From positions 30,423 to 94,422 of the forward strand of contig MDYQ01000097.1 of the NCBI GenBank assembly GCA_003024175.1: 64,000 nt of DNA. The letters are read 5' to 3'. Shown here piece after piece: positions 57,807 through 62,783 of the stretch. The first letter of the stretch is position 1. Each line of letters starts with the position of its first letter. Origin of the DNA: Planoprotostelium fungivorum (lineage: Eukaryota > Evosea > Variosea > Cavosteliida > Cavosteliaceae). The translations under genes and the position numbers were made by a program. Under the pieces are notes generated by a model. The model searched no databases and was not told the DNA's origin. It was given only the letters and a program-made list of their open reading frames with translations.

Positions 57807-57812
57807 TTTATT
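57807..57812 (-). terminator. Poly(A) signal overlapping the receptor pseudokinase stop codon
   Basis: The minus strand reads ATC GAA TAA ATC; TAA is nested in AATAAA. This supports the receptor gene ending here rather than continuing into the beta-helix relic. Confidence 0.6.
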
Positions 57813-60800
57813 CGATTCCGTAAGGATCAAATTTCTCCTCATCCACCTCCTTCGTCTCCTCGTACTCGAATATTCCCTTGTTCCCCCTATTCATTCTGCC
57901 GGCGATCTCCGTGAATGTGATTCTGTCTTTCATCTCTTCTTCCATGCAATCCGAGATAATACCCTTGACAGAAGCATCCCATCCTCCCTCAATGATCATC
58001 GCACTCTTTCTCTGCACTCGACCGTCAGTGATTGCGACATCATCGTTCAACATCATCACCTGTTGTGACGATTCTCTTCCGTCTCTGGCTATGAAGGCTA
58101 ATATGAGGCCGAAACTCCACACGTCAGATTGCACGTATTGTACTCCGTTCTTGACCACTTCCGGTGCCTAGATGAAAATCAGATACACCTTCTGTTCAAA
58201 TTATTTGAGATTTGCTCACTGTGTGGTCCGAAGGTTTTCCCTCGTATTTCGTTCGATCAGGAACGCTCTCACTGAAGCTCGTGATTTTTGCCATGACCGA
58301 TCCCTCTGCTATCTGCAACAGAATCTATCCTTCTGTCAGACATTTAAATCGAACGAAGAGAACGCACGTGGTGAGCATGCAGCTGAGTGTGCACGATCTT
58401 CTGTTCGGTGACATAAGACATTCCTCTTGCTATGTCCCTACCTCTGTCTCTCCGTCAGCTCCTGTACTTCACAATGATCGAAAGAGGAATGATGGAACGA
58501 ACGATCACATGGAAAAGAAGAGAGGGGAGACGGAGTGAGAGCGAGCGTAAGAGAAGAGACTGCCTTCGTCCATCCATTCCATCATCATCCATCCTTCTGT
58601 TTGAGGTATTAGTCTCTCAATTCATTCCGTGAATATTCCACTCACCAGATAGATTTTGAGATAGAAACATGACCACATTTGGGTGTCGCATCGCCTGTCC
58701 TCTTCAGTATCTATTACCATCTCTGATGAATCATCACCTTCAATCTCGTCGCTTCTTGCACGACATCTCTGACGTCTTTCACGTCTCTCTTCTTCACTGC
58801 AGCCAACATCGTCTCGTTCTGTGTGACCTTCCACACTTGTGTCTTCTCCTTCTCACTGACTCGTTCGATCCAATCGATCTTGCCTGCACTCTGACCCTCT
58901 GCCATCCCCATCATGATCATCGACGAATCCATGTCCTTCTGTTCCTCCGTCACATCTCAAATCATCTTTCAATCATCACCTTGCTCTGTGATCTACGGCG
59001 ATAGACTAAGATGGACAAGATTAAGATGAGGATGAGTCCACCGACGGCGCTGCACACGATGATGATCATCGTGACGTTTACCATCTTCGGTACATCGAGG
59101 ACAGCTCGTTCGGTGGGTGGGACGATGCGCTCTACACCGATGGAGAAATTGGTGAGATGGTTCGTCTGACAGATCGTGAGATCTCCTTCTTTGATGAGAT
59201 GGATGCCGTCTCTGGACCACAGAGAGAGGGGTTCGTTCCAATATTGGCACACCGGATCTGTTTTCGTATTGATGATTTCGTTTCGAGTGGCAGATGAACG
59301 AAACTCACAATAATCGACGGGAATATCATCGATGATGCCCATCGTGATGTTGATCAAGTCCGTCACACCTTTGATCTCGATCTCCCTTCCCTGTGAATAG
59401 ACGCTCACTCCAATGACCTTACTGTATCTATCTGATCGTCAGATAAATTCAGAGAGGAAAGAGAGAATCACATGGATTGGTTATTCGTCGAAGCGAATGG
59501 GTTGTACGATATCGAAGAGAGAGACACCGAAACTGTCTCTTTGTCATGAACGATCCTCTTGTCTGCTCACCTTCTTGCGAGGAATTAATGATCGAAACAG
59601 GTATCGCCACGCTGATGATGCTGTTCACGATGCCAGTCTCGATCCTCTGGCTGGTATTTGTCCTCGTGTCGTAAGATTGGAGCTTGATTGATACATCGGT
59701 CGAGTTGTACTCGAAGGATGTTGCATTGCGTGAAAGTGCTAGGGTCACAGCAGATATCGTCCTGATGACCTATGTCGTTCAGACGCATCATCATCTCTGA
59801 CTCACGTCTCCACTATTTGCCAATGAACTGCCGAGAACGTTCTAATCACGTCATTCATCTCTTCTCTGTGTTTCTCTCACCTCTGCTTGCTGTATGGATA
59901 TCACCGTGTTGTTATTGTACAATGCATCCAAGATGGACTTGTCGTTCGTGCATGGTAGATAGTCGATCGCACACACCGACGAGACTCTGATCGTCGGCAG
60001 GCATGGGAAAGAGTTACCTCTCATGTCACAATTGTCCGTGACATTGATGTATCCAACAGACGTGAAAGAATTACCGTTGAGGAAGAGACTGGTCAGCCCT
60101 GAGAGTGTGATGCTTCTCGAGGGCACAGATCCGTTCAGGTGATTATCATTGAGAGAGATATTCCTTAGATTCGGCATGTTCATGATGGAATCAGGTATAG
60201 GCCCTGAAGAACAGTTCAGATCGACGACACTTTTCGATTTGATGTCTCTCACCTTCCAGTTGATTGTTGTTGAGAAAAAGTCGTGTCACGGCTGTGAGTC
60301 TGCCAATGGACGAAGGAATGGGGCCGCTGAGCTGATTGTAGCTGACGTCGAACCAAGTGAGAGCCGTGTTGTTGTACAGGACGTCAGGCAGGCCAGTCAG
60401 CAAGTTACTCTGCAGAGCGCAGATGTTCAGTTGTGTCAGATTGCCAAAAGACGGCGGAAGTACTCCACTCAGTTGATTGTAACTCAGCCATATCTCGGTC
60501 AGAGAGGCAGCGTTGCCGATGCACAAAGGAATGGCAGTCAGACTGTTCAGCAGTCCGTTGAGATAAGTCAACTTTGTCAACCCACCTGCTCATCATCAGA
60601 GATCAAACGATCAAGAACGACGTCACGCTCACAGATAGAGTCAGGTATAGGACCACTCAGTTGATTGTAGCCCACGTTGATGTAGTTGAGGAGAGTGAGG
60701 TTGTGGAACGAGTCAGGTATGCTTCCGTTGAGCTGATTGCCATCCACTCTGAACCACACGAGCTGTGTGAGCTTGCCAATGGAAGCTGGGATCGATCCAG

Positions 60801-62783
60801 TCAGTTGGTTCTGGTTCAGTCCCATAGTATAAAGGCTGGTCATGCCTCCAATCGATGCAGGAATGCTGCCAGACAGCTGGTTGGACCCCAAATACAGTTC
60901 GACAAGATTACTCAAACTGCCAATGGAAGGAGGGATCATTCCATTCAGTTGGTTTGAATCCTGTATCCTCTTAGAAGTGAGAAGAATGCAAGTGATTCGT
61001 CACCATGTTCAACCTGTTCAACTGCTGTAAGTTGCCAATGCACGAAGGAATCGATCCCGTCAGCTGTGTGCTACTCATACTCAGTACAACCAGCTGAGTC
61101 AAATTACCTTATTCATTATCAGTCACAGAAGTTGCGCATTCAACACTCAGACTCACAGATGCTGTTGGGTATTGTCCCCGTTATTGGAATGTTTTCCAAG
61201 ATGATCCAAGTCAGATTGACGAGGCCTCCTATCGATGGAGAGATGGAGCCGGTCAACAGATTACCTCCAAGGTACATGTATTTGAGAGCAGTGAGGTTGT
61301 ACAGTGACTCAGGAATGGTCCCATTCAGCTTGTTGTTTCGACAGTCGAGGTAAGTGAGCGATGTGAGTGATCCAATGGACGAAGGAATAGCTCCCGATAG
61401 TTGATTATCAGAGAGATACAGCAGAGCGAGTGATTTGAGTGATCCAATGGTCGAGGGAATGGCATTGCTCAGTTGTGTCTGCCACAGACCCAGAGTGACG
61501 AGAGATGTAAGCCTACCAATGGAAGGTGAGATTGAGCCTGTCAGCGGATTGATGCTCAGATCGAAGAAGGTGAGGGCTGTGAGGTTGTAGAGAGACTCAG
61601 GGATGATGCCAGTCAGCTGATTGCTCTGCAGCGTCAGATAGTTGAGCTGCGTGAGGCTGCCAAGTGACTCTGGGATGCTTCCGTTCAGCTGATTGTAATG
61701 TAGAGATAGTTGTGTCAGGGATGTGAGGTTGCTGATGCACGACGGGATGTTGCCAGTCAGTGCGTTGGACTGAGCGTTGAATATGCTCAGCTTTGTCATG
61801 CCACCTGTCTCGTATCACTATCTACCTTTATCCAACACGTGACTCACATAAAGAAGTGGGTAGCGATCCGGTCAGTTGGTTCACTCGCAGATTGAAAGTG
61901 ACGAGGTTGATCAAGTTACCTACAGAAGGAGGGATAGAGCCACTCAGCGAGTTCGTGTCCTATCATCTGTCTGTCAGTGATGCACCAACAGACTGCCGCT
62001 CACGAGATAAGCAGTGTCCAGCTGCTGTAGATTGCCTATACACGACGGAATCGATCCCGTCAACTTCATCGTGCCAAGGTTCATGTAAGTTAGCTGAGTG
62101 AGGTTGCCTGACACATCCATCAGTCCACCTCTCTCCTCTCATCACTCACACAGACTGTCAGGTATGCTTCCTGTCATCGGATTACCCCCCAGAGCGAGCA
62201 GAGTCAAGTTGGTCAGGCTTCCTATGGCTGCGGGGATTGTTCCGTTCAGATATAAGCTTTGCGGGCCACCGCTGGTGTATTTGATTTGGACGGGATAGAT
62301 ATCATTGGTATCACAGGTGACGCCGACATAGTCGGTAGAGTTACATACCTTTCAGACATTAGATGATGAAAGAAGATCGTGAGATGATAACGATGATGGA
62401 CTACGATGTATCATCGCTGATGATGGTGATGGATCAAATATCGATTGAGACGATGCATCATGCTCTTGAATGATGGATGAAAGGTGGTCGGTCACATTAT
62501 CTCCGGTCCAGAATCCTGTTGGACCTGTATGTAATCTCAGAGAAAACGCGAAATTCAGTGACGGGATATGAAATGGGTCAACCGTGAATGAGTATGAAAG
62601 AGGATTTATGAACCACATCTTTCCATTATAAAGAGAAGAGAGAATAATCATCACGGAAGACGCACCTCCGAACGAACTCCATATTCCTTTCATTGTTGCC
62701 ACAAGATTCAGATCCGACTGCGCCTCACATCTGCGTGGGAAGAGTAAGAGAAGAGATACAGTGGTCCACAGGTAGTGCATCAT
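57808..62783 (-). CDS. LRR receptor with GAIN/GPS cleavage motif, one TM helix and a cytoplasmic pseudokinase
   Basis: The signal peptide MMHYLWTTVSLLLLFPRRCEA is followed by the cap SDLNLVATMKGIWSSFGG and plant-type LRRs (NQLSGSIPASIGGMTSLYTM; NNKLNGTIPESLYNLTALKY). A Cys cap (CDMRGNSFPCLP) closes the LRR near 59.95 kb. A GAIN-like segment (IVNSIISVAIPVSIINSSQE; VIGVSVYSQGREIEIKG) leads to a GPS motif: VCQYWNEPLSLWSRDG, then ICQTNHLTNFSIGV, with the HL-T cleavage residues. The TM helix is VNVTMIIIVCSAVGGLILIL. The kinase domain has IERVSEKEKTQVWKV (no Gly loop), LAAVKKRD with the Lys, an alpha-C Glu (DVVQEATRL), MRHPNVVMFLSQN, EWMDEGSLFSYARSH, then HTQLHAHH for HRDLxxxN, KITSFSES for DFG, APEVVKNG and SDVWSFGLI. 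The catalytic Asp, Asn and DFG Asp are lost, so phosphotransfer is unlikely. Exon joins inside the GAIN part (59.45-59.58 kb) are unresolved. Confidence 0.82.

What the first reader, a model, noticed from the sequence alone, without database searches (positions are those of the whole stretch)
57808..62783. LRR receptor that couples a GPS autoproteolysis motif to a single TM helix and a pseudokinase
GPS motifs are best known next to seven-helix domains of adhesion GPCRs and in polycystins. Here an intact-looking GPS (CQYW...W...C-QTNHLTNF) sits between plant-type LRRs and one TM helix that leads to a kinase fold with HRD changed to HTQ, the loop Asn to His and DFG to SFS. The design suggests a cleaved, tethered ectodomain that signals through a catalytically dead scaffold. 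I know of no described receptor family with this order of domains, though related amoebozoan genes may exist.
Basis: partly seen in the sequence, partly recalled or inferred. Interest (0 to 1): 0.85.

Follow-up and report, generated by a model that had tools for sequence, protein, structure and literature searches.

The report
Self-cutting amoeba receptors with dead kinases
This amoeba gene encodes a cell-surface receptor that joins a domain expected to cut itself, best known from two animal receptor families, to a kinase that has lost its catalytic residue, and it belongs to a large family of such receptors in the same amoeba.

Summary
At 62783-57808 (minus strand) a 21-exon gene encodes 1289 aa: LRRs, a GAIN domain ending in a GPS (HL|T), one TM helix and a pseudokinase (HRD>HTQ, Asn>His, DFG>SFS). 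Two exon boundaries of my first model were corrected. The host is Planoprotostelium fungivorum. The gene is no singleton: 150 of 150 scored genome hits pass the GPS cut-off. Of 50 GPS sites read, 47 have clear kinase-like exons downstream; the HRD Asp stands in 2 of 46 readable loops, both near-identical copies. In 39 relatives HLT is kept in 39, the HRD Asp in 0 of 36 readable rows. The pseudokinase is under purifying selection. A stalk profile finds only adhesion GPCRs in the PDB. A transcriptome relative from an unnamed eukaryote has the same GAIN-TM layout with intact tyrosine-kinase motifs. One 2025 paper names PKD1-like proteins as the only other GAIN family besides adhesion GPCRs, so this looks like a further class. 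Cleavage and signalling are untested; this GPS lacks two of four cysteines.

The parts
57808..62783 (-). Whole gene, 21 exons, 1289 aa; exons 62783-62666, 62524-62496, 62348-62150, 62107-62004, 61959-61848, 61804-61157, 61107-61004, 60960-60633, 60585-60253, 60203-59881, 59841-59806, 59769-59571, 59532-59472, 59427-59309, 59257-58980, 58938-58738, 58694-58646, 58596-58509, 58443-58368, 58324-58220, 58167-57808
   Evidence: Reading frame and GT-AG reconstruction checked against paralogs; no transcript evidence for this gene
62718..62783 (-). Predicted signal peptide (residues 1-22)
   Evidence: Hydrophobic N-terminus judged by eye; coordinates
62310..62714 (-). LRR N-terminal cap (WTGDNVCNSTDYVGVTC), spliced over three exons
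   Evidence: Coordinates; cap-like by eye, not called by Pfam on this protein
60046..62255 (-). Plant-type leucine-rich repeats (residues 81-711)
   Evidence: Pfam LRR_8 2.1e-53
59704..59979 (-). GAIN subdomain A, approximate (residues 734-800)
   Evidence: Helices 330-377 in the model of paralog P0007, mapped by eye; boundary approximate
59136..59703 (-). GAIN subdomain B with GPS (residues 801-945)
   Evidence: Family profile matches 23 PDB sequences, all adhesion GPCRs, best 6.2e-13 over 130 profile positions
59472..59532 (-). Exon missed in my first model; encodes VSVSLSSISYNPFASTNNQS of GAIN
59136..59252 (-). GPS motif (residues 907-945)
   Evidence: Pfam PF01825; genome hit G000:C32:89561-89677
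59151..59159 (-). HLT codons (residues 938-940); predicted cut between Leu939 and Thr940
   Evidence: HL|T/S rule from PMC11697300; position
59001..59069 (-). Single transmembrane helix (residues 968-990)
   Evidence: Hydropathy; helix 553-575 in the P0007 model, low pLDDT there
57892..58878 (-). Tyrosine-kinase-like pseudokinase domain (residues 1018-1262)
58322..58397 (-). Degenerate catalytic loop VHTQLHAHH (HRD Asp>Gln, Asn>His)
58265..58285 (-). DFG replaced by SFS
57811..57831 (-). C-terminal FDPYGIE, acid-x-Tyr tail motif seen in many paralogs
   Evidence: 23 of 39 relatives against a control mean of 5.2, maximum 12; motif chosen after looking

Best explanation
The gene is one member of a large, partly tandem-duplicated family of single-pass receptors in Planoprotostelium fungivorum. 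Each joins a variable ectodomain (here LRRs) to a GAIN/GPS domain, one TM helix, a tyrosine-kinase-like pseudokinase and often a tail with an acidic-Tyr motif. Most likely the GAIN domain cuts itself at HL|T during secretion and the LRR fragment stays tethered without a covalent bond. Ligand, prey contact or pulling then loosens or removes it and changes the TM and pseudokinase arrangement. The pseudokinase acts as a dead scaffold or allosteric partner for active kinases, with the tail tyrosine as a docking site. Shown by computation: domain order, family size, GAIN homology, conserved HLT, lost catalytic Asp, purifying selection. Inferred: cleavage, tethering, force or ligand release, partner kinase, tail phosphorylation.
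For: Domain set in this gene and in 22 of 24 closest paralogs. 150 of 150 scored GPS hits in the genome pass the family cut-off; 63 of 150 lie within 15 kb of another against 17.6 on average (maximum 33) for random placement. 50 GPS sites read: HLT in 50 (chosen by a GPS model); kinase-like exons of 50 summed bits or more in 47, weak in 1, none in 2; HRD Asp in 2 of 46 readable loops. 39 relatives: HLT 39 of 39, HRD Asp 0 of 36 readable. One hydrophobic segment after the GPS in 38 of 39 relatives and in P0038; P0030, a long record, shows a second. HLTNF is the longest invariant run in a 30-sequence alignment that includes P0038. GAIN profile to PDB: 23 hits, all adhesion GPCRs; a protein search also met ADGRG1 of a dolphin at 8.5e-8. 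AF2 model of paralog P0007, mean pLDDT 82.8, HLT519-521 between strands 512-517 and 522-529. dN/dS of the kinase part 0.14 (window against L060, 213 codons) and 0.44 (window against L020, 244 codons); 0.17-0.48 in 21 pairs of one cluster. Acid-Tyr tail motif 23 of 39, control mean 5.2 and maximum 12 in 2000 draws.
Against: No cleavage or expression data. Two of four GPS cysteines are missing in this gene. There is no 7TM for a tethered agonist to act on. Two GPS genes have a TM-like segment but no kinase. Two near-identical copies keep an Asp at the catalytic position. The tail motif is absent from 16 of 39 models, some with doubtful ends; a plain Tyr in the last 14 residues (27 of 39) is not beyond its control (mean 16.2, maximum 28), and the motif was chosen after looking. 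Gene models rest on splice rules and paralogs, not RNA. dS above 1 for the window pairs is near saturation, and only two window pairs had dS below 2. The displayed top 50 of both Foldseek searches show kinases and, for P0007, plant LRRs, no GAIN domain.
Confidence: 0.68

Rival explanations
1. The GAIN domain is a structural, uncut stalk: the HLT peptide is kept because it lies at a core beta strand, and the receptor signals as an ordinary dimerising LRR receptor.
For: No cleavage data. Two of four GPS cysteines lost here, and C2 is lost only where C4 is lost (20 both, 9 C2 only, 7 neither, 0 C4 only, 3 unreadable), as if a disulfide was given up.
Against: The whole cut-site triad HLT is kept, not only buried hydrophobic residues: 39 of 39 relatives and P0038. 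Fold constraint alone need not keep His and Thr.
Confidence: 0.2
2. The kinase is not dead: another acidic residue replaces the HRD Asp, as in some atypical kinases.
For: The VAVK Lys is kept in 31 of 33 rows of types A-C, a Glu in the predicted alpha-C helix is invariant in 30 sequences, and the domain is under purifying selection.
Against: No common acidic residue stands at the catalytic position: Q, S, R, A, I, L, M, N, H and C occur. The DFG Asp is found in 5 rows only, P0040-P0043 and P0045.
Confidence: 0.1
3. Decaying or decoy genes: a burst of duplicates drifting in subtelomeric and tandem arrays.
For: This gene starts about 1 kb from telomere-type repeats. Kinase-less GPS genes exist.
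Against: Open frames, GT-AG introns and kinase-part dN/dS of 0.14 and 0.44 for the two usable window pairs and 0.17-0.48 in a cluster of seven genes.
Confidence: 0.05
4. An ordinary plant-like LRR receptor kinase family with an incidental GPS-like motif.
For: Source names such as 'LRR receptor-like serine/threonine-protein kinase'; plant LRR ectodomains among structure matches.
Against: GAIN homology over 130 profile positions to adhesion GPCRs; Pfam GPS in 14 of 14 members tested; best structure matches of the kinase are Src-type tyrosine kinases; other ectodomains on the same module.
Confidence: 0.03

Closest known systems
Adhesion GPCRs (ADGRG1/GPR56, ADGRG6, latrophilins)
   Same: GAIN domain with HL|T/S GPS between a large modular ectodomain and the membrane; best profile match ADGRG1, 6.2e-13
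   Different: One TM helix and a pseudokinase instead of seven helices
Polycystin-1 / PKD1-like proteins
   Same: GAIN domain outside GPCRs; autoproteolysis (PMC11697300, passages)
   Different: 11 TM helices (PMC9672506, abstract start in the listing); no kinase (recalled)
Plant LRR receptor kinases and receptor pseudokinases (FLS2, MIK2, CORYNE)
   Same: LRR-TM-kinase order; CORYNE's pseudokinase is reported to transmit a signal (PMC4983110, listing)
   Different: No GAIN domain (recalled); kinase here is closest in structure to tyrosine kinases
Receptor tyrosine kinases, with pseudokinase members such as ErbB3 (recalled)
   Same: Single TM, tyrosine-kinase fold; P0038 looks like an active version with GAIN
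   Different: No GAIN domain in those known to me (recalled); here nearly a whole large family lacks the catalytic Asp
P. fungivorum LRR/tyrosine-type kinases P0025 and P0026
   Same: LRR plus tyrosine-type kinase in the same species
   Different: HRDL..RN and DFG present, no GPS found

Membership tests
GAIN/GPS domain proteins | Sequence homology to GAIN beyond the GPS motif | tested here: met
   Family profile matches ADGRG1 over 130 profile positions, 6.2e-13; 23 of 23 PDB hits are adhesion GPCRs
GAIN/GPS domain proteins | HL|T/S cleavage triad | tested here: met
   HLT at residues 938-940; 39 of 39 relatives
GAIN/GPS domain proteins | Four GPS cysteines (usual, recalled) | tested here: not met
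   C1 and C3 only in this gene; C2 and C4 both present in 20 of 36 readable relatives
GAIN/GPS domain proteins | Autoproteolysis | not testable with these tools
   Needs a blot
Adhesion GPCR | 7TM domain after the GPS | tested here: not met
   One TM helix, then kinase
PKD1-like | 11 TM helices | tested here: not met
   One TM
Protein pseudokinase | Kinase fold by homology | tested here: met
   PF07714 6.7e-27; paralog model matches single Src-type kinase domains at TMt about 0.72-0.79
Protein pseudokinase | Loss of HRD Asp, loop Asn or DFG Asp | tested here: met
   Q, H, S
Protein pseudokinase | No phosphotransfer | not testable with these tools
   Needs an assay
LRR receptor kinase | LRR ectodomain, single TM, intracellular kinase domain | tested here: met
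LRR receptor kinase | Catalytically competent kinase motifs | tested here: not met

The most novel reading that the evidence does not exclude
A further class of GAIN receptors: self-cut, tethered-ectodomain receptor pseudokinases, over a hundred in one predatory amoeba, derived from an active GAIN receptor tyrosine kinase still found in another eukaryote, and used as a surface recognition repertoire that signals through a tail phosphotyrosine.
Probability: 0.4. Interest if true: 0.92.

Novelty: new variant of a known kind. Interest (0 to 1): 0.8.

Why it matters
[quoted passage not shown] Here GAIN is joined to a single-pass receptor with a tyrosine-kinase-like body, in a large family, and with intact kinase motifs in another eukaryote. 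That gives a natural test of whether GAIN cleavage is a general mechanical or ligand release device, independent of a 7TM tethered agonist. It also offers a family that keeps the cut site in every member read while the catalytic Asp is gone from nearly all.

Tried and rejected
Rejected: first gene model without exon 59532-59472, which left a gap against the paralogs' GAIN; corrected. Acceptor 58312 replaced by 58324.

Rejected: one-off fusion; the architecture repeats across the family. Disfavoured: pseudogene, from dN/dS.

Led nowhere or weak: the structure searches displayed kinases and plant LRRs, so the GAIN fold was judged from the profile search and the strand order of the models, not from Foldseek. 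The kinase tree groups P0038, P0025, P0026 and two animal RTKs apart from types A/B, C, D and E; it does not settle how often the catalytic Asp was lost, and P0045 and type D sit on long branches. My splice-aware script is noisy on other loci, so I used exon-wise profile hits for the census. The loop reading of L009 rests on a 32-bit hit and is doubtful. Three HxDLxxxN-like strings (L023, L024, L029) lie about 330 bases after the GPS, well before the loop position, and were not counted as loops. The lectin-like reading of type C rests on one source name and a sub-threshold B_lectin match in P0032 (E 0.044). A plain tail-Tyr count was not beyond its control. The organism of P0038 is not named in the output.

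Not done: a genome-wide scan for HxDLxxxN and a PF07714 scan (the machine did not answer); SH2 proteins of P. fungivorum. Papers: nine searches (one search gave none) show no title or abstract start that describes a GAIN/GPS-TM-kinase receptor; I opened passages of only a few of the listed papers. Searches found two papers that I looked up by DOI not held (recalled as the P. fungivorum genome paper and the 2012 GAIN paper); most subscription journals are not searched.
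Full report
Observation. I rebuilt the gene from the minus strand. The protein has 1289 residues: a signal peptide (by eye), an LRR cap, LRRs (residues 81-711), GAIN (about 734-945), one TM helix (968-990), kinase fold (1018-1262) and a short tail ending DPYGIE. Comparison with paralogs exposed an exon my first model had taken for intron (59532-59472), and a splice-aware script moved one acceptor to 58324. HTQ for HRD, His for the loop Asn and SFS for DFG are read directly. 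The GPS keeps HLTNF, both Trp and two of four Cys.

Host and family. A search with the GAIN-kinase part gave 29 proteins at E up to 0.001; the 24 strongest (E up to 3.5e-54) are all named Planoprotostelium fungivorum, an amoebozoan. By precomputed Pfam 22 of these 24 carry LRR, GPS and kinase. Many bear names such as 'LRR receptor-like kinase'; one is annotated as the mismatch repair protein Msh2 with Msh2 domains in the same model. Further searches gave other types: a lectin-like type (P0030-P0037) and an LRR/TIG type with a Thr-rich stretch seen in the locus prediction (P0040-P0044) and P0045.

Census. The genome (36.9 Mb, 471 contigs) gave 176 GPS candidates; 150 were scored and all 150 passed the family cut-off, one with a stop codon inside the match. 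63 of 150 lie within 15 kb of another; random placement gives 17.6 on average, 33 at most in 200 draws. I could read DNA for 50 sites: the 30 top-ranked, 10 spread over ranks of about 31 to 141, 9 more inside fetched stretches, and the window. HLT: 50 of 50, with the warning that these were chosen by a GPS model. Kinase-like exons downstream: 47 at 50 summed bits or more, one weak (L021, where an N-lobe-like stretch is visible by eye), two none. The last two are near-identical GPS genes with a TM-like segment and a short tail. Of 46 readable catalytic loops, 44 lack the Asp; the two that have it are near-identical copies (DIDLTAEK, with Lys for Asn). Some sites are near-identical (L011/L012, L023/L024), so a part of the 150 may be recent copies or assembly duplicates. 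If the sample holds, the family has well over 100 members; that is an extrapolation.

Dead site, kept cut site. In 39 P. fungivorum proteins including the window's, HLT is present in 39; the HRD Asp in 0 of 36 readable rows (P0006, P0013, P0044 unreadable); the DFG Asp in five (P0040-P0043, P0045); the VAVK Lys in 31 of 33 rows of types A-C. Exactly one hydrophobic segment follows the GPS in 38 of 39; P0030, a long partial record, has a second far downstream. In a 30-sequence alignment with one foreign member, without type D, the longest invariant run is HLTNF. Kinase-part dN/dS is 0.14 for window against L060 (213 codons, dS 1.14) and 0.44 against L020 (244 codons, dS 1.14); other window pairs had dS of 2 or more or could not be computed. 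For 21 pairs among seven genes of one cluster it is 0.17-0.48; in 18 of the 21 it is below that of the GPS-TM segment (0.28-0.84), equal in one, above in two. So the pseudokinase is constrained.

GAIN. A 14-member profile of the stalk finds 23 PDB sequences at E up to 1, all adhesion GPCRs, best ADGRG1 at 6.2e-13 over 130 profile positions. Three of its pieces carry one to five mistyped residues at their first end. A type C search also met ADGRG1 of a dolphin at 8.5e-8. Pfam GPS matches 14 of 14 members. AF2 models of P0007 (mean pLDDT 82.8) and P0036 (65.2) show helices, then strands with HLT just before the last strand, a TM-region helix (low pLDDT in P0007) and a kinase fold. Cysteines: C2 is absent only where C4 is absent (20 both, 9 C2 only, 7 neither, 0 C4 only; three unreadable), which fits a C2-C4 disulfide given up in some members, the window's among them. 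This weakens the case for efficient cleavage in this very gene.

Foreign relative. P0038, a EukProt transcriptome protein of unnamed organism (E 1.7e-16), has PMP-like repeats (sub-threshold), TIG, GPS with HLTNF, one hydrophobic segment after it and a kinase with HTDLSARN, DFG and VAVK. All 60 displayed PDB matches of that kinase, of 1858, are tyrosine kinases. So a GAIN receptor with intact tyrosine-kinase motifs exists, and the layout is found as one transcribed reading frame in at least one species. A kinase tree groups it with active kinases and leaves the number of losses open.

Tail. An acidic residue followed within three positions by Tyr occurs in the last 16 residues of 23 of 39 relatives; random windows from the same proteins give a mean of 5.2 and at most 12 in 2000 draws. 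Against this: a plain Tyr in the last 14 residues (27 of 39) is within its control (mean 16.2, maximum 28), and the motif was chosen after looking. It is a lead for phosphotyrosine docking. Acanthamoeba is reported to have 22 tyrosine kinases and 48 SH2 proteins, Physarum 4 and 18 (PMC4053784, PMC4758236, passages). SH2 proteins of P. fungivorum were not counted.

Literature. PMC12716839 (passages, and its adhesion GPCR section part 1 of 2): GAIN joined to 7TM is traced to stem holozoans; GAIN in other genes of diverse non-holozoans is acknowledged. PMC10445921 (passages): no GAIN domain in amoebozoan family 2 GPCRs, with P. fungivorum included. [quoted passage not shown] PMC13197933 (term search of the held part): no occurrence of 'kinase domain', 'protist' or 'Amoebozoa'. 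PMC6040629 (passages): GPS in choanoflagellate proteins beside 7tm_2. No title or abstract start in my nine searches describes GAIN-TM-kinase receptors. The domain calls are visible in public protein databases, so the proteins are deposited but, as far as I could find, not described as a class.

Verdict. I score it as a new variant of a known kind: known modules in a combination and scale for which I found no description.

Noticed in passing
window about 63784-64000: TTTAGGG-type telomere repeats close the window, whose end is contig position 94422 of C32 (28 GGGTTTA in the last 400 bases); the receptor gene is the last gene I modelled before them.
   Followed up: partly
window about 26938-21291, minus strand: A second LRR gene whose repeats run on, in my rough model, into beta-helix (PMP-like) repeats; no kinase-profile match there and no second GPS hit in the window.
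   Followed up: partly
window about 57595-56776, minus strand: Beta-helix repeats just downstream of the receptor gene, similar by eye to those of the second LRR gene; P0038 carries sub-threshold PMP-like repeats too.
   Followed up: no
L044/L045 (G000:C351:52113 and 55341): Two near-identical GPS genes with a TM-like segment, a short basic tail and no kinase match: possible decoy or co-receptor forms.
   Followed up: partly
L023 and L024: Near-identical type D copies that keep Asp at the catalytic position (DIDLTAEK) but have Lys for the loop Asn.
   Followed up: no
P0002, P0041, P0042: Public names mislead: 'DNA mismatch repair protein Msh2', 'G-protein coupled receptor 64', 'RHS repeat-associated core domain-containing protein'.
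   Followed up: no
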